Origin: Persicaria tinctoria | Taxonomy: Eukaryota > Streptophyta > Magnoliopsida > Caryophyllales > Polygonaceae | NCBI GenBank assembly: GCA_037127255.1 | Contig: JBANSL010000008.1 | Span: 36,469,373-36,533,372, forward strand | Direction: 5' to 3' | Length of the DNA stretch: 64,000 bases | Shown here: positions 1-57,657 of the stretch, piece after piece | Numbering within the stretch: the first letter of the stretch is position 1 | Layout of the letters: each line of letters opens with the position of its first letter | Notes under the pieces: model-generated | What the model was told of the DNA's origin: nothing | Seen by the model: the letters and a program-made list of their open reading frames with translations, nothing else | The model's database searches: none | Translations under genes and position numbers: made by a program

Positions 1-147
1 ATGTGGCATTCAAGGGTGAACACCCGCCACGAAATTTGCCACGGTCAAAAATAATCGTCGCCAATGTCATTGCTATTGGCTACGAAAACAGCGTCGCCTG
101 ACATTCGTGGCTAAAAATCCGTAGCTATTTCCTGCTTTTTAGTAGTG
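1..147. mobile_element. CACTA (EnSpm/CMC) right terminus, first copy
   Basis: The segment ends at 147 with CTTTTTAGTAGTG, the mirror of a CACTACTAAAAAG terminus. It is preceded by alternating GCCACGAA / GTAGCTA subterminal motifs, which are typical of CACTA elements. The next three bases are ATA, a candidate 3-bp target-site copy. The left end lies before the window, so element length and coding content are unknown. Confidence 0.7.
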
Positions 148-289
148 ATATTAACTTTTTTTATTATTATTTGTCTATAATTTATTATCAAAAAATATTA
201 AGTTGTAAAAAAATAATTTTAAAAAGTTGATATTTTATATAGTTTTTAACTTATTAAAATACGTGTTAAAAAGTCAAACAACACGTAAT
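1..289 (+). repeat. Direct repeat, copy 1
   Basis: These 289 bases recur at 3018-3306 with the same length and only about ten substitutions by eye (about 97% identical). The repeat includes both the CACTA terminus (to 147) and 142 bases of its flank, so it cannot be explained by two independent transpositions. A segmental duplication of about 3 kb is the simplest reading. Confidence 0.85.
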
Positions 290-2412
290 AAGAATTTATT
301 AGTTAATAAAAGGTTTTATCAAACATTTATTCCTTACTTATATGAGCTTTTCACAAAACATTCATTTATAGTATTATAATAAGAATTTATTAGTTAATAT
401 AAGGTTTTATTAAACATTTAGTCATTACTTATATAGCATTTCCTCAAAACATATTCTTATGGTATTCTAATAAGAATTTATTACTTAGTATAAGGTTTTA
501 TTAGCTACTTATATGAGTTTTTCTCATAACATAACCTTATAGTATTATAATACGAATTTATTACTTAGTATAAGGTTTTATTAGTTATTTATATGAGTTT
601 TTCTCATAACATAACCTTATAGTATTATAATAAGAATTTATTACTTAGTATATGGTTTTATTAGTTACTTATATGCGTTTTGTTCAAAACATAACCTTAT
701 AGTATTATAATAAGAATTTATTACTTAGTATAAGGTTCCATTAGTTACTTATATGAGTTTTCCTCAAAACATTACCTTATAGTATTATAATAAGAATTTA
801 TTACTTAGTATAAGGTTTTATTAGTTACTTATATGAGTTTTCTTCAAAACATAACCTTATAGTATTATAATAAGAATTTATTACTTAGTATAAGGATTCA
901 TTAGTTACTTATATGAGTTTTCTTCAAAACATAACCTTATAGTATTATAATAAGAATTTATTACTCAGTATAAGGTTTCATTAGTTACTTATATGAGTTT
1001 TCCTCAAAACATTACCTTATAGTATTATAATAAGAATTTATTACTTAGTATAAGGTTTTATTAGTTACTTGTATGCGTTTTCTTCAAAACATAACCTTAT
1101 AGTATTATAATAAGAATTTATTACTTAGTATATGGTTTTATTAGCTACTTATATGAGTTTTCCTCAAAACATAACCTTATAGTATTATAATAAGAATTTA
1201 TTACTTAGTATAAGGTTTTATTAGTTACTTTTATGAGTTTTCTTCAAAACATAACCTTATAGTATTATAATAAGAATTTATTACTTAGTATAAGGTTTTA
1301 TTAGTTACTTATATGAGTTTTCTTCAAAACATAACCTTATAGTATTATAATAAGAATTTATTACTTAGTATAAGGTTTTATTAGTTACTTATATGAGTTT
1401 TCTTCAAAACATAACCTTATAGTATTATAATAAGAATTTATTACTTAGTATAAGGTTTCATTAGTTACTTATATGAGTTTTCCTCAAAACATTAGCTTAT
1501 AGTATTATAATAAGAATTTATTACTTAGTATAAGGTTTTATTAGTTACTTATATGAGTTTTCTTCAAAACATAACCTTATAGTATTATAATAAGAATTTA
1601 TTACTTAGTATAAGATTTCATTAGTTACTTATATGAGTTTTCCTCAAAACATTACCTTATAGTATTATAATAAGAATTTATTACTTAGTATAAGGTTTGA
1701 TTAGTTACTTATATGAGTTTTCTTCAAAACATAACCTTATAGTATTATAATAAGAATTTATTACTTAGTATAAGGTTTCATTAGTTACTTATATAAGTTT
1801 TCCTCAAAACATAACCTTATAGTATTATAATTAGAATTTTTTACTTAGTATAAGGTTTTATTAGTTACTTATATGAGTTTTCCTCAAAACATAACCTTAT
1901 AGTATTATATTAAGAATTTATTACTTAGTATAAGGTTTCATTAGTTACTTATATGAGTTTTCCTCAAAACATTACCTTATAGTATTATAATAAGAATTTA
2001 TTACTTAGTATAAGGTTTTATTAGTTACTTATATGAGTTTTCTTCAAAATATAACCTTATAGTATTATAATAAGAATTTATTACTTAGTATAAGGTTTTA
2101 TTAGCTACTTATATGAGTTTTCCTTAAAACATAACCTCATAGTATTATAATAAGAACTTATTATTTAGTATAAGGTTTTATTAGTTGCTTATACGAGTTT
2201 TCCTCAAAACATCTTCTTAGAGTATTATAATAAGAATTTCTTACTTAGTATAAGGTTTTTATTAGTTACTTATATGAGTTTTACACAAAACAAAACCTTA
2301 TTGTATTATAATAAGAATTTATTACTTAGTATAAGGTTTTATTATCTACTTATATGAGTTTTCCTCAAAACATACCATTATAATATTCTCATAAGAATTT
2401 ATTAATTAGTTT
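290..2412. repeat. 80-bp tandem satellite array (about 26 copies)
   Basis: An 80-bp unit repeats head to tail, with a core reading ACTTAGTATAAGG, TTAGTTACTTATATGAGTTT, TCAAAACATAACCTTATAG and TATTATAATAAGAATTTATT. Central copies are nearly identical, while the first units (290-480) and last units (after about 2200) are more diverged. That pattern is expected of an array homogenised by unequal exchange. The unit is very AT-rich and has no open reading frame. Confidence 0.95.
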
Positions 2413-2469
2413 TTTTTTGGTATAAATTTATTAATTAGTTAAAATATGCTTATTTTCAACACTTATAAT

Positions 2470-3164
2470 TTATATAAAAAAAACATTCATAGTCATATTT
2501 GGGCTCGTCAATGGGTAAATCGGGGAAAGTATAGTCATATTTGGGCCCATAATAAATTAAAGCCCATTTGAGTTCAATCGTAATAGCAACGGATTTAGCC
2601 ACGGACCGAGTCGTTGCTAAATCCACATTTCATTCTACGGGCTAATAAAGTAATTGGGCCGATCATATCTAATGGGCTTTTGATCCAAGTCGATCCCATA
2701 ACATTTGTTCTTCTTTGTTGGTCACGGATTCAGCTACAATTCAAGTCCACTAACCTCATGTCCGACCCGGCTACAAAAACCGATAAAAACCGATCCAAGG
2801 CCACTCACCTCGTGTCCATTCCATCGTCGGAATTCTGAAGCTGAATAGCCACGGATTTAGCCACGAAGTTGATGTTGTTGCCAGATCAGCATCAAATACA
2901 GCCACGGAATATGCGTTCGTAGCTAATGTCGTGGCTAATTACCACTACCATCCGGTTTTTCAGCCACGAACCCAGCCACGGACAGTGTATTCGTTGCTAA
3001 CAGCAACGAAGTTGATGACGTGGCATTCTTGGGTGAACACTCGCCACGAAATTTTCCACGGTAAAAAATAATCGTTGCCAATGTCATTGCTATTGGCTAC
3101 GAAAACAGCGTCGCCTGACATTCGTGGCTAAAAATCCGTAGCTATTTCCTGCTTTTTAGTAGTG
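2470..3164. mobile_element. CACTA terminal fragment, second copy
   Basis: From about 2583 the sequence is dense in subterminal motifs (GCCACGGA, GCCACGAA, CGTTGCTA in both orientations). It ends at 3164 with CTTTTTAGTAGTG followed by ATA. No CACTACTAAAAAG left end is visible between the 80-bp array and this terminus, so the copy is truncated on the left. The frame at 2614-2838 is incidental. No transposase was seen. Confidence 0.7.
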
Positions 3165-3306
3165 ATATTAACTTTTTTTATTATTATTTGTCTATAATCT
3201 ATTATCAAAAAATATTAAGTTGTAAAAAAATAATTTTAAAAAGTTGATATTTTATATAGTTTTTAACTTATTAAAATACGTGTTAAAAAGTCATACAACA
3301 CGTAAT
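3018..3306 (+). repeat. Direct repeat, copy 2
   Basis: Second copy of 1-289. It runs through the CACTA terminus into identical flank and stops at the same base where copy 1 gives way to the 80-bp array. Here it continues into unrelated AT-rich DNA. Confidence 0.85.
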
Positions 3307-3805
3307 TTGGATCGGAGAGAGCATTTATTTCTTTCTTTTTAATATAGACATTTAACTTTCAGATGGAATATAAAATACTCAGTATAAAATATGGTAATTA
3401 AACTCCCATTGTAATTTCCCCCACAAAATTATCAATAAACGAATATTTTGACCTCATATCCATTCACTCAACTCAAAATTAGAATAAATCAATACTATTA
3501 ATAATTATCTATATCTATATCAAGAAGTATATATATTTTTAATTAAAGAAAGTGTGTTAATTATATAAATAAAATTATTCATAATTATTATTAATAATAT
3601 TAATTATAATGTGTATTTCCGTTTAAGGTTGATCTAAGCTTTGGAAAATCTGTCATATATTTATAAACTTGTTAAAATTAAATCAATTTTTTTAATAGTT
3701 ATTTTTTTTTTCAAATTCAGTACAGATGTATAAAGAATTAAAGACGCGTATAGACATATAAAGATGGTTCCTGGAGTGTCGGTCGCGCAGACCGGGATTT
3801 ATAAT
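3307..3805. other. AT-rich intergenic DNA
   Basis: Very AT-rich stretch between the CACTA copy and the first foldback MULE. No coding, RNA or repeat feature was recognised apart from simple TA runs. Confidence 0.6.
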
Positions 3806-3814
3806 TTAATTTAA

Positions 3815-3990
3815 CGGAAATTTCGCGAGGTGCCCTCGTGGTATTGCAATTTTCGTCGGGTGTACAGAAGTTTGACATATTTCGCGTGGTACCCCTGACG
3901 TTTGGGTTGATTTTGCCTCGCGCCCTTAGGGGTTAAAATTGACGGAAGAAAGATGGCTCCGTTTGATTTGAATTAAGAAAACAAGAAAAG
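3815..3990 (+). repeat. MULE-1 left terminal inverted repeat
   Basis: It matches the inverse of 8262-8439 with only a few differences. Inside it a motif of about 15 bases (TTTCGCGAGGT / TTTCGCGTGGTACCCC) recurs, so the TIR is itself built from short imperfect repeats. Confidence 0.88.
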
Positions 3991-4059
3991 AAAGAAACAA
4001 AGCGAGAAAAGAAAGAAATAGAGACGAACGAAGGCAGGAGGGAAACGACTCACAGTCTG

Positions 4060-4700
4060 AAGGAGGACGAAGGCAGAAGGAGTTAGAAGTGGCCGCCGGC
4101 AAATCCATCTCGTGGTGATGGAGGACGTCGAGCATATGGGGGACGCCGTGCAGAGAGGGGGACCAACCTACAATCGGGCAGAAAATCTTGTGGTGATGGA
4201 GGCAATCGACAAGGAAGGTAACCACGACCGGACTTCTAGGCCGCTGACCGGAGTTATAGTTGGCGGTGGTATGAGGTTAGTGCTGGAAATTTCTCCCCTT
4301 TCCTAAAATTACAAGGGTTAGGTTGAATTTTCTTTAACACTGTTAGTTTGTCATAGAAATTGGGGGCTAGGGTTAGTGCTGGAAACTTGTTCGTTTGTCA
4401 TGGAAATTGGAGAAGTTTCATTGTGTGAATTGTTATTTTTTGAACATGGAAATCAGAAATTGAGAACTTGGACTGTGGAAATGGAAAACGCTGAAACAGA
4501 AGTCGATGTGTGTGACCATGATGGGTTATAATCAGTGAGGTCCCCTTACTAAATGCTGACTTTAATTGCTTCTTCATTGGGTTAACCATTGCTTGATTAT
4601 TTCAGCAGGTGTTCTTCGACTTCTTGTACTATCATGCTTCCTTGTTCTATTTATCATCATCAGCTTCTTTTAAATCGAAACTCTAAAGCTCAGTTACCTT
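4060..4700. other. MULE-1 left-arm interior, exon-like GC-rich segment
   Basis: A GC-rich purine-biased stretch (about 4020-4270) follows the left TIR and holds a 64-codon frame (4112-4306). A GTGGTGATGGAGG motif occurs twice, near 4112 and 4190. The corresponding right-arm segment carries a splice-donor-like sequence, so this may be an ancient captured 5' exon. No protein family was recognised. Confidence 0.35.
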
Positions 4701-4779
4701 ATGACAAGCTCAGTTAGTTGGTAAAGAATTTTTCGTTGTTCAATTGGATGTGGTTTTGAATGTAAGGAATTATGACAAC

Positions 4780-5370
4780 ATAAGTCTTAATGGCTACATA
4801 AGTTATGTCAGAAAGTGAATCAAGGTTGCAAAACAAGCTGAATGGAATGTACAAAACTGAAAACAAAAATACAGAAATCAGATTACATATAAAATTGAAT
4901 GCACAGACTGAAATTGATGCAAACTGAATGCAGGTTAGAAAGCTGAGTATGAATACAGAAATAACATAATGCAGAAACTGAAATTGATGCAAAAATACAG
5001 TGTACAGAAGCTGAATACAGAATACATAAAAATAATACAGAAAAACATAATCTGAAATACAGTATATAGAAGCTGAAGTATAGAATACATAAAATCTGAA
5101 ATACAGAAAATAATGCAGAACCTGAAATACAGAAAATCAGAAATTCAGAACAGATAAAATCTGAAATACAGAATACATAAACTAAAACACAGAATACAGA
5201 AAAAACAAAAAATCTGTAAAATTCATGCAAAAACTAAAATATAGAAAATCTAAAATACAGAATACATAAAATCTGAAAAATTGAAATACAGAATGCATAA
5301 ACTAAAATACATAAAACAGAGAAAACTAAAAATCTGAAAAATTAATGCAGAAACTGAAATACAAAAAAAA
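4780..5370. repeat. Low-complexity ACAGAA / CTGAAATACAGAA repeats
   Basis: Dozens of short degenerate repeats (GAAATACAGAA, AAAATCTGAAA, ACATAAA). They keep long spurious frames open on the minus strand (for example 4714-4992 and 4883-5230), which I do not regard as genes. Confidence 0.8.
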
Positions 5371-5408
5371 ATTGGTTGATATTTTACGAAATGACTTTAT
5401 TTTATTTT

Positions 5409-5478
5409 GGCCTATTAGCTCAAATGGTAGAGCAATGTGTTGTACACATTGATGTGGGTTCAAATCCCACATAGGCTA
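5409..5478 (+). tRNA. tRNA-like sequence T1 (not a canonical tRNA)
   Basis: Acceptor strands GGCCTAT and ATAGGCT pair. The D arm is GCTC/GAGC and the T arm is GTGGG/CCCAC with loop TTCAAAT. Box A (TAGCTCAAATGG) and box B (GGTTCAAATCC) each miss the polymerase III consensus by one base. The anticodon arm is short: the 6-bp stem AATGTG/CACATT closes a 5-base loop, and forcing a 7-base loop would give a UGU anticodon. A TTTTTT run at 5484-5489 could terminate polymerase III. It is probably a tRNA-derived module rather than a working tRNA. Confidence 0.6.
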
Positions 5479-5489
5479 CAATCTTTTTT

Positions 5490-6850
5490 AGTGATTGTAA
5501 TCTCGCATTGAAAGTGTGTAGTTTTAATGTTTGCAGATCATACGTCATATATATAAGGTTTATTTAGTTATCTAGGTGGTTTAATCAGTTCAAAAAAGGG
5601 AAAAGCAAACCAAACTTTACCCTTTTCACAAAACTAGAGCAGGCAAACTTCATTTGGGACGGATTTGTTTATAGAGATTAGAGACCTACCAGTAATAAGC
5701 TCAAAGAAAATGAAATTGAAGGTTTCTGAAAAATGGATCTTAGTAAAGTATAAGATGTGCATTCCAATTTTTTTTGTTAAACCATGGTCTTCAATTATTT
5801 TTATTAAACCATGGATCTTTAATTTTCATTAGAGTATCTATTGTTATCTAGATTGCAAATAGCAATAATATTTACGATTATGACAACATACATAATGAGC
5901 AAACATGACAAGTGAGAATAATATCACTCTCCCATAGCAAATTATAGACATAAAAAATTGTAACGGTATGATATTAAAGCCTATGTGGGATTCGAACCCA
6001 CACCATGTGTATGAGAACACGTTGCTCTTCCAATATTTAAGCTAATAGGCTGAAATCATTATCTCTCATTCACTTGAGTATTCAACATATAAGCACAAAG
6101 CACAATCAATCACAATGTGCAAATCAGAGACGAGCCTCAAATAATTGGCTGATTGAGAGTCAAGAATGCAAAATTTAAGAGATTACACACCCATTTGCTA
6201 TAACACTGAAAATCAAATCAATTCACCTCCTCAAATGTGCTTATACACTTTATATCAAGACCTAGCATCTTCCACATTAGTACTTACAACTGACTGATTT
6301 TTTAGTGCATGAAAAAACAGAATTGAATTGAATTGCTTACCTTGTTAAACTGATACAAATGTACTTACCAAGAACATATTGCTTACCTTGTTGAAGAATA
6401 TAAAGGTTGCCCATTGGCTTAATATTGAGGTGTCAAAATAGTGCATTAAAATTCATTCACATACAAACTGACTATAGCAATTTCACATGTAACATTTCAG
6501 TAAAGGAATGTTTGTAGCAATTTCACATCAAAACCCCCAATGCCACATCACAAGAAAACACCCCAATTTCAAATTGACTTCACCAATTTCACATCACAAG
6601 AAAACCCCAATTTCAAACTGACTGCATCAATTTCAACCTAAACCCTAAATTTCAGTAAAGGGGAAATATGTCAAGCACTAACCTGAATATAATATCTAAA
6701 TTTGCAAACCAACAATGTCAAAAAGAATATAAAGTCTAAATGCTCACTGAATATAATAGCTAAATGCCCACTGCAATTTGCAAATTCTCACTGAATATAA
6801 TAGCTAAATTCTAACATTTACAAAAATGCAAATGCCCATCTAAACACAAA
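5490..6850. other. MULE-1 centre and right-arm interior
   Basis: Apart from T2 this part has no credible coding content. The 6500-6680 portion, with several CACATCACAAGAAAA and CCCCAATTTCAAA repeats, is partly the inverse of left-arm DNA near 4270-4420, supporting a foldback structure well inside the obvious TIRs. Confidence 0.5.
5977..6052 (-). tRNA. tRNA-like sequence T2, convergent with T1
   Basis: On the minus strand it has the same GCCTATTAGCT start, ATAGGCT end and GTGGG/CCCAC T arm, with a perfect box B (GGTTCGAATCC). Box A is disturbed by a few extra bases in the D loop. The anticodon arm is irregular (stem GTGT/ACAC) with CTCAT in the loop. A minus-strand TTTTTT lies about 25 bases downstream. 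Its 3' end faces that of T1 across about 500 bp, inside the same MULE. Confidence 0.6.
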
Positions 6851-6854
6851 GTCA

Positions 6855-7735
6855 GGGCTTGTTTGGGATGGGTATATAGATATAGGCTATGGGTATAGAA
6901 AGCCCAATATCTATATACCCTGTTTGGTATATTTAGTCAAATTAGTATATGGATATGGATCCTATATCTCCTATCTACTTATTCAAGGGTTTTTCTCACA
7001 TTTGGATATCTATCAAATTTGGGGGATATGGGGATATAGGAAAAAGACGCTTTTGCTCGCTCGCTTCCATTGCCGGGTACTGAGCAGATACAATTTCTTC
7101 TCCTTCTTCTTCTTCTCTAGAGATCTGCTCACTATTACAACTGGTCAAACTTGCATCTGTGTTAAGTGCTGTTCGAATTTGTTTTAGGGTTCGATTTTTT
7201 TTTCCGCTTGCATCCGTTCTCCTTCTCTATGCTGTTCGAAATTGCTGCTCGAATTTTATGCTGTAATCACTTGTATCTGCTCGACTTTATGCTGTGTGAA
7301 ATCGATTCGAATCAATTTCTGTTCGAATTTTTTTTTTCAAACGAATGTCACTTGTATTCTGTTCGAAGGAGGGTTCAAAATTTATTTTTTTTCGCTTGCA
7401 TAGTTGCATCTGATATTCTCTATGCTGTACGAAATTAAAATGGTCCTAATTATTTTGTTGTTCTCTAATTTGTTCGAACATTGACCATTAGGGGTTTGAA
7501 ATTTATTTTTTCACCTGTATGTTGTTTGAACATGTCGAAAGTTACAAGGTTTTTGGTTCATTTTGATTACATTTTCTCTTTTTGTTTTATTTTGATATCT
7601 ATATACCCTTTCCAAACGACAGATATAGGATATAGATATCAATCTCATACCCATACCCAATACCCATAGCCTAACATCTATATCTCATACCCATAGCCTA
7701 TATCCTATATCTATATACCCTTTCCAAACGGGCCC
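6855..7735. mobile_element. PIF/Harbinger-type (Tourist-like) element nested in MULE-1
   Basis: The termini GGGCTTGTTTGG and CCAAACGGGCCC are inverted. They are followed inward by matching GGGTATATAGATATAGG / CCTATATCTATATACCC, and flanked by the 3-bp target copy TCA (6852-6854 and 7736-7738). The T-rich interior has short open frames (for example 6924-7187 and 7166-7438) with no recognisable DDE transposase. The GGGCC-GTTTGG terminus with a TNA target fits the Harbinger group. Confidence 0.75.
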
Positions 7736-7739
7736 TCAG

Positions 7740-8261
7740 TTTGATAGATAGATAAATAACCAATTTCGTCCTGCAACAAACAAAAGCATCCATTCAATTT
7801 CGTCCTGCAACAAAAGCATCAAGACATGCACCCAATTCAACAAAAGCATCAACACACCTAATTCGTCCTGCAACAAACAACTAACCCCTAAATTCGTCCT
7901 GCAATTTTTTTTCAATGAAGCTTTGTGGACGATTCGGCACCGATTACTAACCCCTAAATCTCAAAACCCTAGATTAAATCGGGAGATACTCAAGAGTTCG
8001 AATCATCCATTCAATTTCAACAATTCGAATCCTCACCCGAACCCCTAAATCCCCAAACCCTAGATTAAAGTAAGAGATACTCACCTGTCTCGCCGTTGCC
8101 CTCAGTCTCCACCGCCGCCCTCTAGCAGCAACTTCGTTCGTCGACCTTGGCACTTCTCTCGAGCTTTCTTCGACCTTCGTCTTCCTTTCTCTCGACCGTT
8201 CTTTCCTTCGCACTTCTCTGGTCTTCTGTCTGGTTGCGTTCCTTTCTCTCGACCTTCGTCT
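7740..8261 (-). other. MULE-1 right-arm exon-like segment with splice donor
   Basis: On the minus strand a GC-rich leader (8261 to about 8085) ends in CAGGTGAGTA, a near-perfect plant splice donor, followed by AATCTAGGGTTTGGGGATTT. The left arm of the second foldback MULE has the same arrangement near 54255-54290, so this is a conserved part of the element. At 7760-7910 there are short direct repeats of AATTCGTCCTGCAACAAA. No protein family was recognised in the 79-codon minus frame. Confidence 0.45.
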
Positions 8262-8439
8262 TTCTTTTCTTTTTTTCTTAATTCAAATCAAACGGAGCCA
8301 TCTTTCTTCCGTCAATTTTAACCCTTAAGGGCGCGAGGCAAAATCAACCCAAACGTCAGGGGTACCACGCGAAATATGTCAAACTTCTGTATACCCGGCG
8401 AAAATTGCAATACCACGAGGGTACCTCGCGAAATTTCCG
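8262..8439 (-). repeat. MULE-1 right terminal inverted repeat
   Basis: Inverse counterpart of 3815-3990, immediately followed by the TTAATTTAA target copy. Confidence 0.88.
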
Positions 8440-8448
8440 TTAATTTAA

Positions 8449-14945: not shown

Positions 14946-15009
14946 AGCCTAAGGCACAAATTTTTGTCTTAATTACAGGAACATCCTAGCTTTTGTAAAA
15001 CTTACTAGA

Positions 15010-15570
15010 GTGTCCACCTTTCTAATTTCGGATGTTTATTTTTCGATATTACCCTTCTTCTATTATACGGTCAAAATCCCTAACCCCATTGCCGCACAAG
15101 CCGATGCCCCAATTTGTAAAAGAGAGAGAAGAGCTCCGCCTGAACAAGGACGAAGAGGAGGAGATCTCGATGCTGAATCTCGCCGTTGCCTCACCGTCGT
15201 CGCCGAGATCTTCTGTTGATTCTCCCACTCTCGAATCGTTCAGGCCACCGCAACCATCATCAGCGGGATACAGAGGAGAAGGAGCGGCCAACCTCGAACT
15301 GAAGCGGGACGACGGCCTACCTGGTAGGAGCCCAAATTGAACGACGGAGTGAACACACCATCAACGGCGGCGACATCGTTGATGATCTCGCTCCGAACCC
15401 TAGCACCATCAATGGCGACGCCGCAGCCTCGCCCGCTGTTGTTACGCCGTCTATACCGCCGACCTCCTCGGCCACGGCCGCTCCGCAGCGCCCGCTGCTA
15501 CCTCGGCTGCTTCGAGGACGAGGTCGCCCCGCCTCCCTCTGTTTCTTCTCCGTAGATTGTAGATCCATCA
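15010..15570. other. GC-rich gene-fragment-like segment in block B
   Basis: GC-rich stretch open in several frames (for example 15032-15340 plus, with an acidic LNKDEEEEISMLNLAV segment; 15317-15571 minus). It begins just after the block's left edge, the usual place for a captured 5' exon. No family was recognised. Confidence 0.3.
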
Positions 15571-16586
15571 TGTAATGTGCAGGTATTGCTCATTCTCCTT
15601 TACTAGTTGTGATTTTGGCCTGTAATTTGGTAGAGTAAAAATTGAAGCAATGGGATTTGAACTTCCTGTATGATCAACTTTGTTTTTATATAGTCATGAA
15701 CTCTGAATCGAACGATCAAATAGCTATTAATTAATTGTTTATAAAATTGATTACAAATAATTAGGGACAGCTTGTGAATAATTTAGTTTATAGATTCAAA
15801 CGGGGTAGCTGGCATTTTGGATTTGGCCGGCACTTGCATCCCAAAGTCCAACAACAATTCGTCTTTGTATCTTGGATGTTCGAATTCCAGTATCACCTCT
15901 TTAAGATTTCAATATTGTGGTGCTTTTCATTCACTGGAAAAAAATCAAATACATTCTGATTCAACTAATTAAAGAAACTGAATTCCAGTATCAAAAAATA
16001 ATTATAACTTATAACTGAATTCCAGTATCACCTCTTTGAATGTGAGGAATTGCTCCTAACTATAAGTTTTTAGTTGACTGTGTTATAATTTAGAAATACT
16101 CTGTAGTATTTACCTGATTCATTTGAACTAAAATGCTGCATTATGGCTACTTTGTGAATGTGTGAGCAACTCCTCCTTTATGCATCTTTCTTTACTTTCT
16201 CTTGATGGGGCATGATATTCAATTTGCAGGGGAGATCAAATGTGTGAGGTCTCTTAACCATGGGTAATAGCGTCAGGCATTAAAGGTTACATTTTCTCTT
16301 ACCCATGGATAATGATTATGTTTCTTTGGGGCCTTAAGGTTACACTTTCTCTTTTATTAAATGCTAACATCTTCTGAAAATTTTAGAAATTTATTAAATG
16401 GAGATGATAAACCAGTGGCTGTGATTGTTCCCAGAAAAACATTGCAGCCAGAGACGAAAGGTTGCTAATCAGTCTACTCTTTATCCTTACTACCTGTGTT
16501 TCTGTGACGACTGGTGTATTCTTGTCGGCGTCTCTGTTTCACTTTATGTAACTCGCTTGTTCTAACCCACTTTTCCATCTTGTCAG
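15571..16586. other. Intron-like DNA
   Basis: T-rich sequence without coding frames. A phrase GAATTCCAGTATCACCTCTTT occurs twice (about 15883 and 16017). Confidence 0.35.
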
Positions 16587-16680
16587 CGGTCCCTGAGTGG
16601 TTTGCTGCTGGATCCTTTGGCTTGGTGACAATCTTTACCTTACTTCTCCGAAATGTTCCCGCACTCCAGTCAAACTTATT
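16587..16680 (+). pseudogene. Captured exon, hydrophobic peptide
   Basis: TTGTCAG before 16587 and GTATGT after 16680 form splice borders around an open 94-base exon encoding a membrane-like segment (VPEWFAAGSFGLVTIF, then TLLLRNVPALQSN). The exon looks genuine and conserved, but I could not assign the protein family. Neighbouring exons were not found. Confidence 0.4.
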
Positions 16681-17883
16681 GTATGTTACTTCTGAAATTG
16701 GGATGTGAAACCATTGATTGTGAGTGAATCTGAGGGGGCTCTTTTGTAGCTTGGAATTGCGTATATGATCATCATAGGTATTCATTTCCTCTCTCTTTAA
16801 ATTGCGAATTATGACTTTTTAGCTGCCTTTTGTTATATGATCTGTCACTTTTTGATGCAAAATTTTTGTGACAATGTGACTTAGCTCTCTTCTTGGCGCT
16901 CATAGTTTTTAGGGGGTGGATTAGGGGCTGTTTTGGAGCTTTATTGGGACTCGGGAGTGATTTTTGTGTTGTTGTCGGGATTAGGGGTGGGTTAAAAGAT
17001 GGTGAATTTAGATGAGCTCACTAAAACTTAAGGTACAACCAGAGCAAAGACGGGGCTGCTGACGCCGATGAGTCTGCTTATTTGATGCTGACATCTAATA
17101 ATTAGAATATTTGATGCTGACATCTTCGTGTGTTGAACTGTCTTGGCTGCTATGCTGACATCTAATAATTTTTATAGTTGCTATGCTTCCATTCTATTGC
17201 TTTTGAATATATATATAGAAAATATACCTTTTTTCATATGAATTTTCGTGTGTTAAGTATGCTAAATCTTAAATATATTCAGTGTGTTTTTTCCATAAGC
17301 TGTTCTTTATCCTTTTGTTTTCACTTTCCATTTTTTTTTATGTTTCTTGTGCTTTCCCTCTCCTTTTCCTTTCATGTTTTTTGGCTTCTGCAATGAAATT
17401 GGACATTTGGAAAGGGAAGGTTTCTTTTGTATGGCCTATGAAGGGTTAATTGTGCTATTTATGCTTCTCATGCATCTGCAAAGTGAGGCCTACAAATGGC
17501 ATATAAGCTGAACACATTTGGAAAGGGATGGTTTCTTTGTTTTGTCTTGTTAGGTATTCTAGACTTCTAGTTTGGAAAGACTGATATAATAATATCAATC
17601 ATTGTAATACTAATATTTGAAGGTAATTAACCATAGAATTCCATATATAATGACTTCTTCCTGATTTTCTTTTCTTTATGGTTTGGGGAAAACTAGTTTG
17701 GATGTAAAATATTTTCTTTTCTTGTTTTATACTCTTTTATAGAATTCCATATATATAGAGTTCTCCTATGAAATTATCCTGCAATTGTCCTAAATCTATC
17801 TCGCTTTAAGGTTTTCAATTATATTATTAACGTGAATACCAATCTCGTTATAGTCCTGATTGTGCAAGGACGAAGAAATTTAA
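16681..17883. other. Intron-like / spacer DNA of block B
   Basis: T-rich DNA with three TGCTGACATCT phrases near 17093-17165 and no recognised exon. Confidence 0.35.
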
Positions 17884-18884
17884 GGCTATAATCTGAATGC
17901 AACAACAACTACAACAACTACTACCCAGTATATCCCGCCAAAGCAGGGTCTGGGGGGTCAGGATGTACGCACTCATTCCCCGAATAAGTCGAGAGAGTGT
18001 TTCCGAAAGACCCTGAATAATAGAAAACTAGAATTGTGGGCGAGCGAGACTCATACAAAGGAAGCCTAAACATAGACGAAGCAAGGGAAAGGTAAAAGGA
18101 CGCAAGGGCAAAAGGCCAAACATAATAGCACGAAACACTATCCCTCCGCAACCCGAATGCACCGCCTCCAGTGGTCCCTATCTGAAGTGAGATCTTCCGA
18201 CAGATTTAGAAGGTTAAGATCCTTACGAATAACCTCCAACCAGCTCTTCCGTGGTCTACCTCTCCCTCTACAAATAACTCCGAGATCCAAACTCTCGCAC
18301 CTGCGAACCGGGGCCGAAGACGGTCTCCTGCATACGTGTCCAAACCAACGCAATCTGCCCTCCCGCAGCTTGTCCACTATACTCGCCACTCCAACCTTGC
18401 TCCTGATGTCCTCGTTTCTGATTTTGTCCAGTCTTGTGTGTCCACTCATCCAGCGCAGCATTCTCATCTCAGCCACTGACAGCTTATGCTCTTGAGCTTT
18501 AGTTGTCGGCCAACATTCCGAGCCGTACAGAATAGTCGGTCTAACAACCATCCTGTAGAATTTCCCTTTTAGTTTTGCCGGAACTTTTCTATCACATAAC
18601 ACTCCCGACGCTCTTCTCCATCTTAGCCAACCCGCTTGAATTCGATGATCGATGTCCCTGTCTATACCCCCATTGCTTTGAACGAACGAGCCAAGGTACC
18701 TGAAAAACTCTTTTCTGGGGACTAGCTCTTCCCCCAATAAAACCGAATCCCCTGCATCCCTGCCCTCTCCAAAGCAGAACTGGACATACTCGGTCTTGGT
18801 CCTACTCAGTCTGAAACCCTTCGACTCCAACACACTTCTCCATCTTTCAAGTCTGCGAGCCAATCCATCTCGGTATGCATTGAT
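17884..18884 (-). mobile_element. 5'-truncated RTE-clade LINE
   Basis: The insertion is flanked by the 9-bp target duplication GAAATTTAA (17875-17883 and 18885-18893). On the minus strand it ends in short GTTGTTGTAG-type repeats (17899-17923), as RTE elements do. It carries only the C-terminal part of the reverse transcriptase protein, and the 5' end is lost at 18884. Confidence 0.85.
18138..18863 (-). CDS. RTE LINE reverse-transcriptase C-terminal region (partial)
   Basis: The 241-codon minus-strand frame is open to its stop. It holds markers of the region downstream of the catalytic RT core in RTE-type LINEs: SRTKTEYVQF near residue 20, FRYLGSFVQSNGGIDRDI near 55-75, LYGSECW near 113, LSVAEMRMLRWMSGHTRLDK near 130, and LRWFGHV with RGRPRKSW near 175-205. 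The endonuclease and catalytic RT domains are absent because of 5' truncation. The first Met is internal, not a native start. The uninterrupted frame suggests a fairly young copy. Confidence 0.85.
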   Translation of the reverse strand: MARRLERWRSVLESKGFRLSRTKTEYVQFCFGEGRDAGDSVLLGEELVPRKEFFRYLGSFVQSNGGIDRDIDHRIQAGWLRWRRASGVLCDRKVPAKLKGKFYRMVVRPTILYGSECWPTTKAQEHKLSVAEMRMLRWMSGHTRLDKIRNEDIRSKVGVASIVDKLREGRLRWFGHVCRRPSSAPVRRCESLDLGVICRGRGRPRKSWLEVIRKDLNLLNLSEDLTSDRDHWRRCIRVAEG

Positions 18885-18893
18885 GAAATTTAA

Positions 18894-19480
18894 ATCTACA
18901 AGCCAATCATGTAGGCCACAAACTTTATTATCTAATACAGAAGTGGATTAATTTTTTCTTGGTATGCAAATGCAGGAATGGACCCGGAAGATTAATTATT
19001 GTCAATCATCAGAAGATCTGGCCTGGCTTGCTGGGGAATAATTTTAACTGTTCAAATTTCTCATGTCCTTCAAATGAACTGTAGATGCGTCAAAGGCCTA
19101 AGCTAAAAGCTCTTCAAGGTTCGGTACAAGTATGTATCCTTGCCCTATAATTTTTTTTTAAAAAAAAAATCAATTTATTCAAATAAGATTAATTCCTGTA
19201 TGCTTGTCATTCTTGCCAGAAAAGGACCTGATTTAAGGTTATAAAGCAACTAGCACCACAATTCACAAGTGTTAATTGGGAAATGGTATTAATAAACATC
19301 AGAATAGTGCTTACCATCTATAAATCCAGAAGGTTTAACACAGTGTTAGAAAGATTCTAGCACAATTGGATTTGATTCATGGGAAAACTTGGTGCGCTAC
19401 TCTTGCTTGGACTTTGCATTTGTTTTTTAATGTTCATCACTTATGTTGGCAGTTAATTTATGTTTCTTCTTGATTTTTAG
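18894..19480. other. Intron-like DNA of block B
   Basis: No exon, RNA or repeat was recognised. An acceptor-like TTGATTTTTAG ends it at 19480. Confidence 0.35.
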
Positions 19481-19739
19481 GTGCAAACTAGGCAGGCCTG
19501 AATCAATCAAAATCAAGGAGTGCCCCATCTTCGAGCAACTATGCACAATCTTCACAGACAATGTTGCTGCTGGCAAATACGCCCAATCAAGCCATTACGA
19601 AGATTTAGAAAACAGGTCCAATGTTGCAGACACGGCTGGATTAGCATCCTGCAATGGCAGTGAAACGCCACGTTCTGAAGCCCCGTCATCATCAAGATCT
19701 CTTGAGGACAAACAGACACTCACAAGTTACAACATATGA
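19481..19739 (+). pseudogene. Captured terminal exon, Myb/SANT-like protein
   Basis: After a clear acceptor (TTTTTAG at 19480) a frame runs from CKLGRPESIKIKECPIFEQL to a TGA at 19737-19739. The segment CTIFTDNVAAGKYAQSSHYE resembles the end of the Myb/SANT-like domain in plant L10-interacting-MYB-type proteins (linker and ELC-FxD-xATG-like motif), followed by a Ser-rich tail. Upstream helix-turn-helix exons are not present nearby. The family call is tentative. It lies on the same strand as the AP-4 epsilon-like exon, as expected of sequence carried by one element. Confidence 0.4.
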
Positions 19740-20008
19740 ACAAATCTGTTAAAGGTGCTCGAGAACTTGAATGTTGTTTTTCGTCTTACTACCTCTGGCT
19801 TTACAAGTTGTTACTTGAAACGACCTGTAACAAAATGGTACATGGAAGTAGGCCCAGGGATGGGATATATAGATAGTGTATGTTTTAAACATGAATAAAA
19901 TAAAATGTTCAAGTATGATCTTACGCTACTTATGCAAGTACAACCTTGCAAAAGAACTTTGTATTGTGCTTCTCATACTAATAAAATTTGGTTGCTCATT
20001 TCTCCCAG

Positions 20009-20152
20009 TGTCAGTCATTGATTGAAGAGTTGTCAGCGTCCCATTCAACAGATTTGCAGCAACGAGCTTATGAAGTGCAAACACTCGTTAGCTTAGATTC
20101 TCAGGCAGTTGCAAGTGCAATGCCATTTGATGCTAGCTGTGAAGATATTGAG
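20009..20152 (+). pseudogene. Captured exon of AP-4 complex epsilon-like adaptin
   Basis: CCCAG precedes and GTGTGA follows an open exon containing DLQQRAYEVQTLVSLDSQAV and PFDASCEDIE. This resembles the large-subunit adaptin segment just before a conserved VDKNLSFL-type motif in plant AP-4 epsilon. AP-4 sorts cargo at the trans-Golgi network. Only this 48-codon exon was found; it cannot make a functional subunit here. Confidence 0.55.
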
Positions 20153-21339
20153 GTGTGAGCTCTACTATTTCAGTTGCATCTGTTGCTTGGCTAATTGCAT
20201 CTGTTGCTTGGCTACTGACAGATAGCGTTTAAGTTCTCACACGAGGTTCTCCCCTTCTCTCTGAAGTTGATTTACTTGTTCAATTCGAATCAGTTTTAGC
20301 TATATATTGGTGTTACGACTGCGTTTGAGTTCAAATCCATCTGAATCTTTGAATCGATCCTGGATTTCTCCCTGATGCCTCATAATAAACTTTAAGTTTT
20401 TTATATTTATAATGATTGTTCTTCTTATGCCAGATGTTGATGACTTCTTCAACCAGTACGATCCTGGTTAGGGCTTTCTCTTTCCCTCTGTGTCATATAA
20501 AAGGGCCAAAATGCTAAATTCTGTCAGTTGGACGCTATTTGCTAATCCTTATCATATTGAGTTATTTTTTTGGTACTTCAGCAAACAACTGTATTCTTAA
20601 TCTTAGTTTTTCCTTCTCTGAAAATGTCACTTTTGTTGATTATTGATCTTGATTTTTGGACTTGCAATTTGCTCGAATATGAATTTAGGGATCTGAATTT
20701 AGGCCTTTGCTCGAATTTAAAGTCTACATATTTAGATCTGAATTTGGTTTTTAATTAAAAAGATGTAAAAGAAGCTGCTGACATCTTCAATGCTGACATA
20801 TTTAGATCTGAATTTGGTTTGTAAAAGAAGCTGCATATTTAGATCTGAACTTGCATTATTTAGATCTTCAACAAGGAATTGCAAATCCAAACCCTAGGTT
20901 CTTCGAAAATCTCTTGTGCTCAAATTGACAGATTATTTGATTGCAAGTTGTGCTTGATGATGTGCGTCTTTTGCATCTGATTTGATCATTTCTACATATG
21001 CATTTATCTGTCAATATGTGCGTCTTTTGCATCTGTCAATATGTGTATTTATCTGTCAATATATGCATTTATCATTTTCATCAGTACAACTCCACAAATC
21101 TGTCAATATGTGCGTCTTTTGCATCTGTCAATATGTGCATTTATCAGTTTCATCAGTACAGCCCCATGAATCTGCGATTACTTTATAGGAATGGGAATTT
21201 TCATAAGAAAAAGAAAGAAAGAAGGGTTAATCAGTACAGCTCCACGAATTTGTCAATATGTACATTTATCAGTTTCATCAGTACAGGTTGAGATGCTAAA
21301 AGTTGTGCACTTATCTAAATGAAGGAATTTTCCTCTTCT
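20153..21339. other. Spacer of block B with short repeats
   Basis: No family was recognised. Between 20982 and 21290 the phrase CTGTCAATATGTGC with CATTTATC and TTTCATCAGTACA repeats several times and keeps spurious small frames open. Confidence 0.4.
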
Positions 21340-22470
21340 TCTCTGTACTTCCTCTTCGTTGCTATAGACATAGGAAGACTTTGATATCCATAATCATTAC
21401 AAGTTAGAAGCACACCATCTCAGTGCATTTTAGCATTAAAATTCACATATCTAATATCTTAGATGTGGTGGAGTCGTTATATATATCACATGTCAGCAGA
21501 GTAGCATATTGTTATATTAATTCAATCCATTTAAAGGTGGGAAAGGAAACTTTTGATGTGTATCATCATTACAATCTTTTAGGACATCACCTTGCATTTA
21601 GGCATTAAAAATCAGTAACTTAATATGTTAGATTTAGCTAAGTCTCTATATGTCATCAGTATCAACTTATGCATATAATAATCTTAATTTTGCATATCAG
21701 TCATATGGGGTTGCATATCAGTCATATGGGGTTGCATATCAGTAAAATGTAGTTGCATATCATAATTTTACACTTGTACAAAATTAATTTAAGTTAGTTG
21801 CACATCATCCTATGCATATTTTGGATGTGTATACTCATATCAAGCCAGTAGCAAAAATATTCACTGCATTTTAGCATCAAATTTCACAAATCCAATACCT
21901 TAGATTTAACCTAGTCTCTATATGTCAACATCATTAATTTTTTGCATAAGTGACATAGGTTCTAGATTGATCCGTTTTAATTTCTTTTAATATTGGTTTT
22001 AAACAGCAGTAACTTTATTAAATTGGATCTAAATTCTTGGCTTTTGGCACTAATTATTAATTTTCAATTAAAATGTCAACAGAGTAACAGATCCTTATAC
22101 TAATTTAATTCATTATTAGAGCCAAAGCAAGGCTTTGATGTCCATAAACATGACAACTTATAAGCACACCATCTCAGTGCATCTTAGAACTAAAATTCAC
22201 AAATATAATACCTTAGGTGTAGTGCAGTGTATATTTGTCAACAGCATCAAAGTTTTGCATAAGTGTTACAGGTTTTAGTAGCATACCTACTTTTTTTTTA
22301 TGTTGATCACTTTTAAATTCTTTTTATTTTGGTTTTAAAGAGCAGTAACTTTATTAGATTGGGTCTAAATTCGCACCTTTGGCAGTAATTATTATTTTTA
22401 AGGTAAGATGTCAGCAGAGTAACAGATTGTTACAAAATTTCAATTCATTATTGGAGAGAACATAGCAAAG
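21340..22470. repeat. Degenerate outlying copies of the 330-bp repeat
   Basis: About three diverged units (near 21380, 21820 and 22130) share the order: CATAATCATTACAAGTTAG, CTCAGTGCATTTTAGCA, CCTTAGATTTA, GTCAACATCA, TTTTGCATAAGTG, AGTAACTTTATTA, GTCAGCAGAGTAACAGAT. At 21692-21765 a 23-bp unit GTTGCATATCAGTCATATGG is tandemly repeated about three times. Confidence 0.7.
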
Positions 22471-23063
22471 GTTATATTTGCACAACATAAACTTCTTAAT
22501 TTTCACTTTTTTTTTAATTAACTTCCTCTTTTTTCTTTTTTCTTTTTTTTGGTTATATGAGAACATAGCAAAGGTTTTGTGATCTGTTTTGCTAGTTATG
22601 CTATATTTATCTCATTCTCCCTTATGAAGTATGAATTTTCTTACTAGTTATGCTATGTTTTATATTGATTTGATATTTATTGTTCACATGTTATTGCTCT
22701 TGCTAAAAGTTACTCATATACTGTAGAATTTGTTAACTATGCTGATTTGAAAATAGATAAACAGAAAGAAGAGATACATGTGCTGACATGATCTCTTTTT
22801 GTGCAATTCAAGTTCATGTGTATGTTTTTTCTCTATATTTCTATTTGTGTGCTGACATGGTCTTTTTTTGTGCAATTCAAGTTGATGTATAAGTTCTTTT
22901 TTATTTCTAATTGTGTGCTAAAATGACCTCTTTTTGTGCAAATGTGTATACAAATGTGTACTGTTTATTAGGTGTTCCTACTCTTTTTTTTCTCCTTTTT
23001 TGGTTGTGGCGTGAACATAACTCTTACTTGTTTGTTTGAATGTTATCTTATAATATAATTAAA
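22471..23063. other. Spacer of block B
   Basis: AT-rich DNA with a few duplicated phrases (GTGCTGACATG...TCTTTTTGTGCAATTCAAGTT at about 22780, 22850 and 22915). No gene was recognised. Confidence 0.35.
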
Positions 23064-23133
23064 AGCCTTCTAGCTCAATGGTAGAGTGATGTGCTTATGC
23101 GCAAATATGTGGGTTCGAATCCCGCATAGGCTA
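23064..23133 (+). tRNA. tRNA-like sequence T3
   Basis: AGCCTTC/GCATAGGCT-type acceptor ends, D-arm core CTAGCTCAATGGTAGAG, T arm GTGGG/CCCGC with a perfect box B GGTTCGAATCC. The central hairpin TGTGC/GCGCA has a 4-base loop, too short for a normal anticodon arm. It is clearly related to T1, T2, T5 and T6 in the foldback MULEs. Confidence 0.55.
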
Positions 23134-23149
23134 AAATTTATAATAATTC

Positions 23150-23534
23150 TAGTAATTTACAAAATTTTCTAATAATTGTTCAATAATAAGATATATTAGT
23201 GTAATTTTCTAGTTGCATATTATACGTTTACATTTGCATATCATACTTTCACATTTGCATATTTTAATCTTATATTTGCATATCATCAATTTATAACTGC
23301 ATATCATACTTTTACATTTACACACCATCAATTTATATTTGCATAGTATAATCATACATTTTCACAACATCAATTTGTATTTTCCCAACTTATTTTTATT
23401 TCCCCAACTTATTTTTATATTTGCATATCATCAAGTTATAATTGCATATCATTAACTTATATTTGCATATCATCAATTTATATTTGAATATCATCAACTT
23501 ATATTTGTATATCGTCAATTTTTATTTGCATATC
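23150..23534. repeat. TTGCATATCAT short tandem repeats, left side of array
   Basis: About a dozen imperfect 22-30-bp units built on TTTGCATATCAT or ACATTTGCATATC. A related set occurs at 27160-27275, so this motif follows a tRNA-like sequence on both sides of the 330-bp array. Confidence 0.8.
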
Positions 23535-26500: not shown

Positions 26501-26690
26501 GTAATTCAATTCATTCTGACATCAAAATTAGATTTTGGTTGTGCATAATCATTACAAGCTACTAACACAACATCTCACTGCATTTTACATTAGAAGCCAT
26601 TCAACCAACACCTTAGATTGAACTCAACTAATACTAGTCAGCAGCATCCGAGGTTTGCATAGGTACTACATAATAGTAGCACAGTTGTTC
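23535..26690. repeat. Tandem array of about 330-bp units (about 10 copies)
   Basis: CAAACGTCAGCA(C/G)TGTAACAGAT and its variants recur at about 23541, 23852, 24185, 24519, 24853, 25183, 25517, 26139 and 26470, spaced 311-334 bp, with one truncated unit near 25830. Most units contain a perfect hairpin: AAATTTGTGCC, loop GAA, and the inverse arm (near 24150, 24483, 25148, 25482 and 25814; decayed near 24818, 26102 and 26434). No frame spans a unit. Confidence 0.92.
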
Positions 26691-26704
26691 TTTCTTTTAT
26701 ACTG

Positions 26705-27080: not shown

Positions 27081-27085
27081 TTTAA

Positions 27086-27140
27086 AGCCTCTTATGTCAA
27101 TAAATGGTAGAGCGATGCGCTTATGTGAAAATAAGATTTA
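27086..27140 (+). tRNA. Degenerate tRNA-like sequence T4 (5' half)
   Basis: AAGCCTCTTATGTCAATAAA followed by TGGTAGAGCGATGCGCTTAT keeps the 5' acceptor, D arm and part of the central hairpin of T3, but the T arm and box B are lost. It is followed, like T3, by TTGCATATCAT repeats. Confidence 0.45.
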
Positions 27141-55355: not shown

Positions 55356-55425
55356 AGCCTATTAGCTCAACCGGTAGAGCAATGTGCCTAGACACAAGGT
55401 GTGGGTTCGAATCCCACATGGGCTA
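55356..55425 (+). tRNA. tRNA-like sequence T5
   Basis: AGCCTAT/ATGGGCT acceptor, D arm GCTC/GAGC, T arm GTGGG/CCCAC with loop TTCGAAT. Box A (TAGCTCAACCGG) and box B (GGTTCGAATCC) both match the polymerase III consensus perfectly. The anticodon arm is abnormal: TGTG/CACA with a 6-base loop CCTAGA. It faces T6 across 162 bp. No T-run terminator lies just downstream. Confidence 0.6.
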
Positions 55426-55587: not shown

Positions 55588-55660
55588 TAGCCTACATGGG
55601 AGTCGAACCCACATCCTTGTGTATGAACACATCGCTCTTCCAATTGAACAAATAGGCTTA
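55588..55660 (-). tRNA. tRNA-like sequence T6, convergent with T5
   Basis: On the minus strand AGCCTAT/GTAGGCT acceptor strands pair, the D region reads TTCAATTGGAAGAGC, and the T arm GTGGG/CCCAT contains box B GGTTCGACTCC. The central hairpin TGTGT/ACACA has a 4-base loop TCAT, too small for a functional anticodon loop. Same family and orientation rule as T2. Confidence 0.6.
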
Positions 55661-57035: not shown

Positions 57036-57524
57036 GATAACTATTTTGATAGGTAGTTTTATCTGCAACCTTGATACTCAATTTCACAAGCTGACATTAG
57101 AAATCCCAATTTCGAAACCTTAATTTTCGAAAATTTTGAAAGACCACATACCTCCTTTATATAGCCCAGCTCCAGTTGCCCCTCCTCTCTAGTAGATTTC
57201 GGCGCGGCCAAGCTCCAGTCGGTGTAGCCGGTGGGCGTGTGTAACCTTCCCCTTTCTTCCTCGCCTTCTACTACCCATGTTCCTTCCTTCCTCTTCCATG
57301 TATCTTCTTTCCCTTCTTTCTTTCTTTGTTCGCAGCTCCGACCTGGCGCACAAGCAGCAGCAGCTCCAATCGGCGGCGTTCTTACCGACCCCGTAGCTCC
57401 GACCTGGCGGCCGGCCTTCGTGCTCTCTCTGGTGCGAGCATCGTGTGTCTCTCTCTTTTCGCTTCCTTCTTCTTCTTCTGTCCGTTCTTTTTTTCTTCTT
57501 TCAAAATTAACGATGTTAACCCCG
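57036..57524. other. MULE-2 right-arm leader-like segment
   Basis: A GC-richer stretch (57170-57440) that on the minus strand precedes AT-rich intron-like DNA. Frames are low-complexity and no family was recognised. A CTCCGACCTGGCG phrase is repeated at 57336 and 57395. Confidence 0.35.
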
Positions 57525-57657
57525 CCCGGTTAAGTTTAATAGGGAAGGGCACGAGGCAAAAAGTTTCAAAACCTCAGGGGCACCACACGAAATATGCAAA
57601 TGAGTTGTATACCTCGCGAAAATTGCAATACGTCAGGGGTACCTCGCGAAATTTCCG
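57525..57657 (-). repeat. MULE-2 right TIR
   Basis: The more complete of the two TIRs; it ends in the inverse of CGGAAATTTCGCGAGGT, directly before the target copy. Confidence 0.85.

What the first reader, a model, noticed from the sequence alone, without database searches (positions are those of the whole stretch)
3815..8439. A Mutator-like foldback element with convergent polymerase III tRNA-like modules at its core
Seen: exact 9-bp target copies, about 175-bp near-identical TIRs, weaker inverted similarity deeper in the arms, and two tRNA-like sequences (5409-5478 plus, 5977-6052 minus) pointing toward each other across about 500 bp. Each keeps a T arm and box B close to consensus. The outer arms are about equal (about 1.6 and 1.5 kb) once the nested Harbinger is removed. 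Known: MULEs capture host DNA between TIRs; a symmetric tRNA-like pair built into the arms is not something I know as a standard MULE feature. Inference: the modules are a heritable part of the element, perhaps a polymerase III promoter, insulator or integration-site mimic.
Basis: partly seen in the sequence, partly recalled or inferred. Interest (0 to 1): 0.82.

Follow-up and report, generated by a model that had tools for sequence, protein, structure and literature searches.

The report
Transposon carrying paired tRNA-like modules
A family of plant jumping genes carries, near its middle, two inward-facing copies of a tRNA-shaped sequence that has been kept in its folded form while most of the sequence around it changed, which suggests that the tRNA shape does a job for the element.

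Summary
In a 1.68-Gb genome (plant inferred), 3815-8439 is a Mutator-type element with 9-bp target copies, about 200-bp TIRs and a nested insertion. Inward-facing tRNA-like modules lie at 5409-5478 and 5977-6051. A second element (53925-57657) has its own pair. Of 32 TIR-first loci (the 40 scored places), 23 have the pair in the same element, 3 one module, 6 none. Six of six loci chosen by module have a partner. All 30 strong pairs converge. Between 11 subfamilies, TIRs with subterminal stretches and the modules are the main shared islands. The cloverleaf is 96.5% paired with compensatory changes in 8 of 21 pairs; G-U exceeds A-C; elbow bases are near-invariant while the anticodon loop is eroded; Pol III terminators are scarce. 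This points to selection on a tRNA-like RNA, not a tRNA gene, SINE or foldback. Likeliest mechanism (inferred, 0.4): one RNase P/RNase Z-type processing module per strand, cutting transcripts that enter the element. Main rival: Pol III/TFIIIC function. I found no published description in the library searched.

The parts
3806..3814 (.). left 9-bp target-site duplication TTAATTTAA
3815..4015 (+). left terminal inverted repeat of element W1
5409..5478 (+). left tRNA-like module, pointing to the core
5977..6051 (-). right tRNA-like module, pointing to the core
6856..7735 (.). nested insertion, Harbinger-like by eye (3-bp target copy TCA); not part of the family design; absent from L009, L011, L012 and L013
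8244..8439 (-). right terminal inverted repeat of element W1
8440..8448 (.). right 9-bp target-site duplication TTAATTTAA
53925..54060 (+). left TIR of second element W2, same TIR family but another subfamily (inner limit approximate); target copy AAAAATATA outside
55356..55425 (+). left tRNA-like module of W2
55588..55658 (-). right tRNA-like module of W2
57521..57657 (-). right TIR of W2 (inner limit approximate)
23064..23133 (+). lone tRNA-like module of the same kind; no TIR of this family in the window near it and no partner at 15000-34000

Best explanation
The region is a non-autonomous Mutator-type DNA transposon of a lineage whose design includes two inward-facing tRNA-like modules, one in each arm, besides the TIRs. 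Shown: the pair, its orientation, its recurrence across subfamilies, and constraint on the cloverleaf of the sense-strand RNA. Inferred: each module acts inside transcripts as a substrate for the nuclear tRNA-processing enzymes (plant protein-only RNase P at the 5' end, RNase Z at the 3' end). With one module sense on each strand, any transcript entering from either flank is cut in the first arm. This would end the transcript and keep the two complementary TIRs from sitting in one RNA, where they could form a hairpin that feeds siRNA silencing. The released tRNA-like RNA may be only a by-product.
For: All 30 elements with two strong modules have them convergent. Modules are islands: in six reference elements each is matched by 7.9-9.0 of 10 other subfamilies, while the stretches 20-170 bp away are matched by 0-2. 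In 46 aligned modules (42 distinct; 46 of the 53 strong ones then in hand, 7 near-duplicates left out) 96.5% of cells pair; 41 cells have compensatory change against 12.5 shuffled, and 8 of 21 pairs are compensated (9 of 500 shuffles reach 8), including acceptor and anticodon stems outside boxes A and B. Changes from Watson-Crick to G-U outnumber those to A-C by 36 to 16 on a tree, p=0.004, which marks the tRNA-sense RNA strand. T8, A14, G18, G19, T55, C56 and A58 are in 41-42 of 42; G18 and C56 are named as essential PRORP contacts, and plant PRORPs mature mitochondrial mRNA ends at tRNA-like structures (PMC10941002, passages). Anticodon-loop identity is 60% and 46 of 55 ARAGORN calls have no three-base anticodon. 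A T4 run lies within 50 nt downstream in only 6.9 of 25 flank lineages. Left and right modules do not co-evolve (77.3% within an element, 77.2% between subfamilies), which is against a duplex role.
Against: No transcript, small-RNA or cleavage data were available. Boxes A and B are largely intact, so Pol III binding is not excluded, and the lineages with a nearby T run include this window's left module. The cloverleaf tests count related sequences from one genome; the count of further pair types is not remarkable (134 of 500 shuffles reach it). Within subfamilies the modules diverge as fast as their near flanks (2.7% each, 28 comparisons), so individual copies decay neutrally and constraint is seen only between lineages. 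Six of 32 TIR-first loci have no module in the hit element. Divergent modules would also part the TIRs, so strict convergence is not fully explained.
Confidence: 0.4

Rival explanations
1. The modules are internal RNA polymerase III promoters or TFIIIC-binding sites. Facing inward, they transcribe the core or keep the element's chromatin open or insulated, which helps transposase access.
For: A-box and B-box positions are mostly conserved; 5 of 5 modules in the window pass RF00005 gathering. T-rich 5' leaders are common, and plant tRNA genes have A/T-rich upstream regions (PMC11700998 section 3.2). CAA occurs within 50 nt upstream in 16.2 of 25 lineages (78-82% in plant tRNA genes). Most modules meet some T4 run before the partner (56 of 60, median about 58 nt), so short Pol III RNAs are possible.
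Against: T4 within 50 nt in 6.9 of 25 lineages and CAA within 10 nt upstream in 4.7 of 25, below its TTG control of 7.0, against 67-73% and 36-45% of plant tRNA genes. A promoter does not need acceptor and anticodon stem pairing, yet both are paired at about 96%. The first G of box B is A or T in modules of L018, L019, L023, L024, L034 and L039.
Confidence: 0.3
2. Passive hitchhiking: the founding element captured tRNA-derived DNA in both arms and all descendants merely inherited it.
For: Individual copies decay at the same rate in module and near flank (2.7% each). MULEs are known to capture DNA (recalled).
Against: Arms and core have largely lost detectable similarity between subfamilies while the modules keep it, and the substitutions that did occur keep the stems and prefer G-U over A-C.
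Confidence: 0.12
3. The two modules matter as an inverted repeat: they pair with each other as DNA cruciform or RNA duplex, giving a foldback function.
For: They are inverted copies at 66-94% identity in 30 elements.
Against: Left-right identity within elements (77.3%) equals that between subfamilies (77.2%); L044 alone stands out with a recent palindromic copy.
Confidence: 0.04
4. The modules are independent SINE or tRNA-gene insertions, or working tRNA genes.
For: tRNA-like sequence scored by Rfam and ARAGORN.
Against: No excess of direct repeats round modules or pairs, no shared SINE body in flanks, pairing in 6 of 6 module-first loci, and no three-base anticodon in 46 of 55 ARAGORN calls.
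Confidence: 0.02

Closest known systems
Mutator-like elements (MULEs), non-autonomous and Pack-MULE types
   Same: 9-bp target duplications, long TIRs, variable interior, many copies; MULE-family transposases are present in the genome
   Different: A conserved pair of tRNA-like modules as a second conserved island; no paper in the held library has both 'Mutator-like elements' and 'tRNA-like'
mascRNA-type and plant mitochondrial t-element tRNA-like structures cleaved by RNase P and RNase Z
   Same: Cloverleaf with intact elbow and acceptor arm and a free anticodon arm, lying within longer sequence; plant PRORPs mature mitochondrial mRNA ends at tRNA-like structures (PMC10941002 passages; mascRNA and the name t-element recalled)
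   Different: Sits in a nuclear DNA transposon, twice, convergent; cleavage not shown
tRNA-derived SINEs
   Same: tRNA-like sequence with boxes A and B, repeated
   Different: No shared body or target duplication found; occurs inside the DNA transposon
Foldback elements
   Same: Inverted symmetry
   Different: In W1 only TIRs, one small patch and the modules are inverted copies; the arms are not

Membership tests
Mutator-like element | 9-bp (8-11) target-site duplication | tested here: met
   Perfect copies of 9 bp or more in 20 of 23 elements bounded by two TIRs; none found in L021 and L036, one mismatch in L013; in L020 the copy lies 7 bp off the left end; several are T or A runs, where chance matches are easy
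Mutator-like element | long terminal inverted repeats | tested here: met
   181-201 aligned bp in W1, L009, L013, L030 and L032; 281-522 in L022, L023 and L034; 702 columns at 77% in L018; shorter in W2 (62 bp at 89% plus 41 bp) (10 elements)
Mutator-like element | MULE transposase in an element with the same ends | tested here: inconclusive
   No transposase domain in 14 open frames of fetched loci scanned with Pfam (4, 10; chosen by eye from the survey). MULE transposases occur in the genome and two lie 2.1 kb from a module, but without a match to this TIR in the 2.3 kb read beyond the module
Foldback element | arms inverted copies over most of their length | tested here: not met
tRNA-derived SINE | own target duplication | tested here: not met
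   65 modules and 30 pairs, no excess over mismatched controls
tRNA-derived SINE | shared body and tail after the tRNA head | tested here: not met
   Between-subfamily similarity mostly ends at the module edges
Nuclear tRNA gene | cloverleaf with tRNA covariance-model score | tested here: met
   RF00005 above gathering for 5 of 5 window modules
Nuclear tRNA gene | anticodon loop with a three-base anticodon | tested here: not met
   9 of 55 ARAGORN calls only; the left module of W1 is one of the 9
Nuclear tRNA gene | downstream T4 terminator at the usual frequency | tested here: not met
   6.9 of 25 lineages against 67-73%
RNase P/Z-processed tRNA-like structure | intact elbow and acceptor stem | tested here: met
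RNase P/Z-processed tRNA-like structure | cleavage at the module ends | not testable with these tools
   Needs RNA end mapping or an enzyme assay

The most novel reading that the evidence does not exclude
A DNA transposon lineage has evolved a two-strand transcript-cutting device: convergent tRNA-like modules that recruit the host tRNA-processing enzymes to sever read-through RNA, so the complementary ends never form the hairpin that triggers silencing. The same module may also be carried by transposase-coding MULEs with unrelated ends.
Probability: 0.2. Interest if true: 0.92.

Novelty: new variant of a known kind. Interest (0 to 1): 0.76.

Why it matters
DNA transposons of this type are usually described as needing only their ends and a transposase (recalled). 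A second, RNA-level conserved part kept in pairs across many subfamilies implies an unknown step in their life cycle, such as transcript control, silencing escape or chromatin access. It is directly testable in one plant by mapping RNA ends. It would also warn genome annotators that many tRNA-like calls are transposon parts: one exact 25-mer of the module occurs 387 times in this genome, and 0 times when read backwards as a control.

Tried and rejected
Independent SINE insertion: rejected. Foldback relic: rejected for W1, and a left-right duplex role. Working tRNA genes: rejected for most modules. A 3' splice-site reading of the T-rich leader plus AG at the module start was considered on the flanks printed and dropped by eye, because the base before AG varies; it was not tested. 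Within-subfamily rates give no sign of constraint on modules relative to near flanks, reported as a negative.

A partner for the lone module at 23064 was sought at 15000-34000 with filters off and not found; likewise second modules in L026, L028 and L037 and any module in L010, L014, L015, L017 and L038. L028 lost its second module by a deletion of about 355 bp relative to L025. L010 and L017 look like half-kilobase deletion forms and L038 is 1.2 kb.

Parent tRNA: not identified; a DNA search with a recalled plant tRNA-Ile sequence did not complete. A viral-contig scan with the module's 24-mer gave 0 matches. Whether other plants carry this family could not be tested, as no plant collection is held here.

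Autonomous partner: the MULE transposase search (7504 candidates, 150 scored and listed) was intersected with 140 listed module places (100 of 387, 40): 1 pair within 15 kb, 0.37 expected by chance. The sister copy on another chromosome has the same module at the same offset, so the association is probably real, but the left module and the ends were not seen. A pattern search for a guessed end of that element did not complete.

Literature: ten searches. Read: passages of PMC11700998 and its section 3.2 in full; passages of PMC10941002 and of PMC3072357 (its 'Mutator-like' is in the abbreviation list and its 'tRNA-like' is about SINEs, so it is not on this subject). Other papers were seen only as search listings. 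mascRNA, t-elements, Pack-MULE capture and hairpin silencing of Mutator are recalled, not looked up.
Full report
OBSERVATION. Element W1 (3815-8439) has 9-bp target copies TTAATTTAA, TIRs of 205 nt at 94% or 181 bp at 97%, and tRNA-like modules at 5409-5478 (+) and 5977-6051 (-), both above Rfam's tRNA gathering score. A nested insertion, Harbinger-like by eye, occupies about 6856-7735; relatives L009, L011, L012 and L013 lack it. The arms of W1 are not inverted copies of each other: outside the nested insertion, blastn at E 0.01 finds only the TIRs, one 57-bp patch and the modules. 'Foldback' is therefore not apt.

A SECOND CASE IN THE SAME WINDOW. A different subfamily, W2 (53925-57657, target copy AAAAATATA), shares the TIR end and has its own convergent pair at 55356-55425 (+) and 55588-55658 (-). 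At E 1e-4, W1 and W2 share only the TIR regions, a 38-bp subterminal patch and the modules.

RECURRENCE. The genome is 1.68 Gb in 221 contigs; the window is C8:36469373-36533372. The left TIR had 1937 first-look candidates, of which 40 places were scored; these make up 32 loci: W1 and L009-L039. Of the 32, 23 carry a convergent pair in the element whose TIR was hit; L020 is counted with a weak left copy (E 3.5e-4) and L029 with its pair about 7 kb inside. L026, L028 and L037 have one module. L010, L014, L015, L017, L038 and the hit element of L016 have none; L016 holds a pair in a neighbouring element. Of 23 elements with both ends in hand, 20 have two strong modules, L020 one strong and one weak, L028 one, and L038 (1.2 kb) none. 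L028 lost its second module by a deletion of about 355 bp relative to L025. As a check not chosen by TIR, 6 of the 40 places scored by a probe from W2's left module were fetched: 6 of 6 have a convergent partner 104-589 bp away, and 5 of 6 show a TIR match of about 100 bp or more; L042 has only 22 bp. L040, L041 and L042 are close to W2, so these six are not six independent subfamilies. All 30 elements with two strong modules are convergent, gap 104-955 bp with one at 3187 bp. Genome-wide, 730 TIR ends lie within 3 mismatches of a 41-mer, and one exact module 25-mer occurs 387 times, 0 reversed.

CONSERVED ISLANDS. The 23 two-ended elements were clustered by mutual coverage over 60% into 11 subfamilies. 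In six reference elements from six of these, each module is matched by 7.9-9.0 of 10 other subfamilies, the stretches 20-170 bp beyond its edges by 0-2, and TIR positions by up to 10; subterminal sequence to about 400-500 bp is also shared by several. L038 has no modules.

CONSTRAINT IS ON THE RNA FOLD. Of 53 strong modules then in hand, 46 were aligned (7 near-duplicates left out); 42 are distinct. The tRNA cloverleaf pairs in 96.5% of cells, against 93.5% in shuffles and 17-61% in slid versions; 8 of 21 pairs have compensatory changes (mean 4.5, 9 of 500 shuffles reach 8) and 41 cells change on both sides against 12.5 shuffled. The count of further pair types is not remarkable (24 against 22.7; 134 of 500 shuffles reach it). 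Acceptor and anticodon stems, which lie outside boxes A and B, are as well paired as the D and T stems. If the pairs were selected only as DNA, G-U and A-C departures should be equally common; parsimony on a tree of 58 distinct modules (of 65) gives 36 against 16 (p=0.004), and 28 against 11 when each column and type is counted once per 85% cluster of the 46. These tests lean on related sequences from one genome. T8, A14, A15, G18, G19, T54, T55, C56 and A58 are in at least 41 of 42; the anticodon loop is at 60%. Folding nine modules gives z-scores of -2.1 to -4.4; the D arm of the lone module at 23064 does not fold as a standard one.

NOT TRNA GENES. 46 of 55 ARAGORN calls have no three-base anticodon; W1's left module does have one. 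By 25 flank lineages of 65 modules, T4 within 50 nt downstream occurs in 6.9, CAA within 10 nt upstream in 4.7 and within 50 nt in 16.2; published plant figures are 67-73%, 36-45% and 78-82% (PMC11700998 section 3.2). Instead a T-rich tract sits at -3 to -5 (18-20 of 25) and G is absent at +1 to +4; both are unexplained.

NOT SINES, NOT A DUPLEX. Direct repeats round 65 modules or 30 pairs are not above mismatched controls. Left and right modules of one element are not sisters in the tree, many forks of which are unresolved; L044's two, 94% alike, may be an exception. Left-right identity is the same within elements (77.3%, n=30) as between subfamilies (77.2%) (left and right as they lie in the record). 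The pair therefore seems to predate the sampled radiation and is not maintained by copying one arm onto the other.

AGAINST. In 28 within-subfamily comparisons module divergence (2.7%) equals that of the near flanks (2.7%) and is below that of arms (4.5%), so inserted copies simply decay. I have no expression data.

AUTONOMOUS LEAD. Of 150 listed MULE-transposase places, one (C3:1560721, 758-aa frame) lies 2.1 kb from one of 140 listed modules, 0.37 expected by chance. The sister frame at C6:27538195 has the same module at the same offset, 99.7% identical over 327 bp. L046, which reaches 2.3 kb beyond the module, shows no match to the W1-type TIR. A transposase-coding relative with other ends probably carries the module too, but its left module and ends were not seen. 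Fourteen open frames of the fetched loci gave no transposase in Pfam.

MECHANISM. Shown: an inherited convergent pair and RNA-fold constraint without the usual tRNA-gene hallmarks. Inferred: with one module sense on each strand, any transcript entering the element meets a sense tRNA-like module in its first arm. Plant RNase P binds elbow bases that are kept here and acts on tRNA-like structures (PMC10941002 passages). Cleavage would end the transcript and part the two TIRs, so no hairpin RNA forms. This is the best single reading (0.4); Pol III/TFIIIC function follows (0.3).

NOVELTY. Ten searches of the held library listed no paper on tRNA-like modules in Mutator-like elements; in the last, 0 papers hold both 'Mutator-like elements' and 'tRNA-like', and the one paper is not on this subject. 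Listings were judged by title and abstract start. The library lacks most subscription journals. I rate it a new variant of a known kind.

Noticed in passing
L046 (C3:1562700-1565200) and L047 (C6:27540150-27540500): A tRNA-like module 2.1 kb from MULE-transposase frames in two near-identical dispersed copies, with no match to the W1-type TIR: a possible autonomous relative with unrelated ends.
   Followed up: partly
window 23064-23133 (+), array 23547-26716: A lone tRNA-like module beside a tandem array of about 334 bp units; no partner or TIR found.
   Followed up: partly
window 1-3310: An 80-bp tandem array (425-2410, 24.8 copies) flanked by a 287-bp direct repeat at 97% (3-289 and 3020-3306).
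   Followed up: no
window 34087-34884 (-): An open frame covering parts of all three eRF1 domains; possibly a retro-copy or pseudogene of the translation release factor (Pfam).
   Followed up: no
flanks of 65 modules: T-rich tract at -3 to -5 and no G at +1 to +4 of the module across 25 flank lineages.
   Followed up: partly
L044 649-1377: A recent palindromic duplication: the two modules are 94% identical inside a 178-bp inverted repeat at 92%.
   Followed up: no
just downstream of modules in L022, L027, L033 (flanks printed) and L043 1220-1255: Partial second tRNA-like copies in tandem with the module, seen by eye in the first three.
   Followed up: no
L025, L028, L029 and L032, inside the elements: A shared open frame of 112-136 aa with no Pfam match (L028 copy scanned), possibly captured host sequence.
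   Followed up: partly
L014 1548-2528 (-) and 6585-7385 (-): Two frames with DUF1985 near a lone TIR of this family; DUF1985 is recalled as common in plant transposons that carry captured genes.
   Followed up: no
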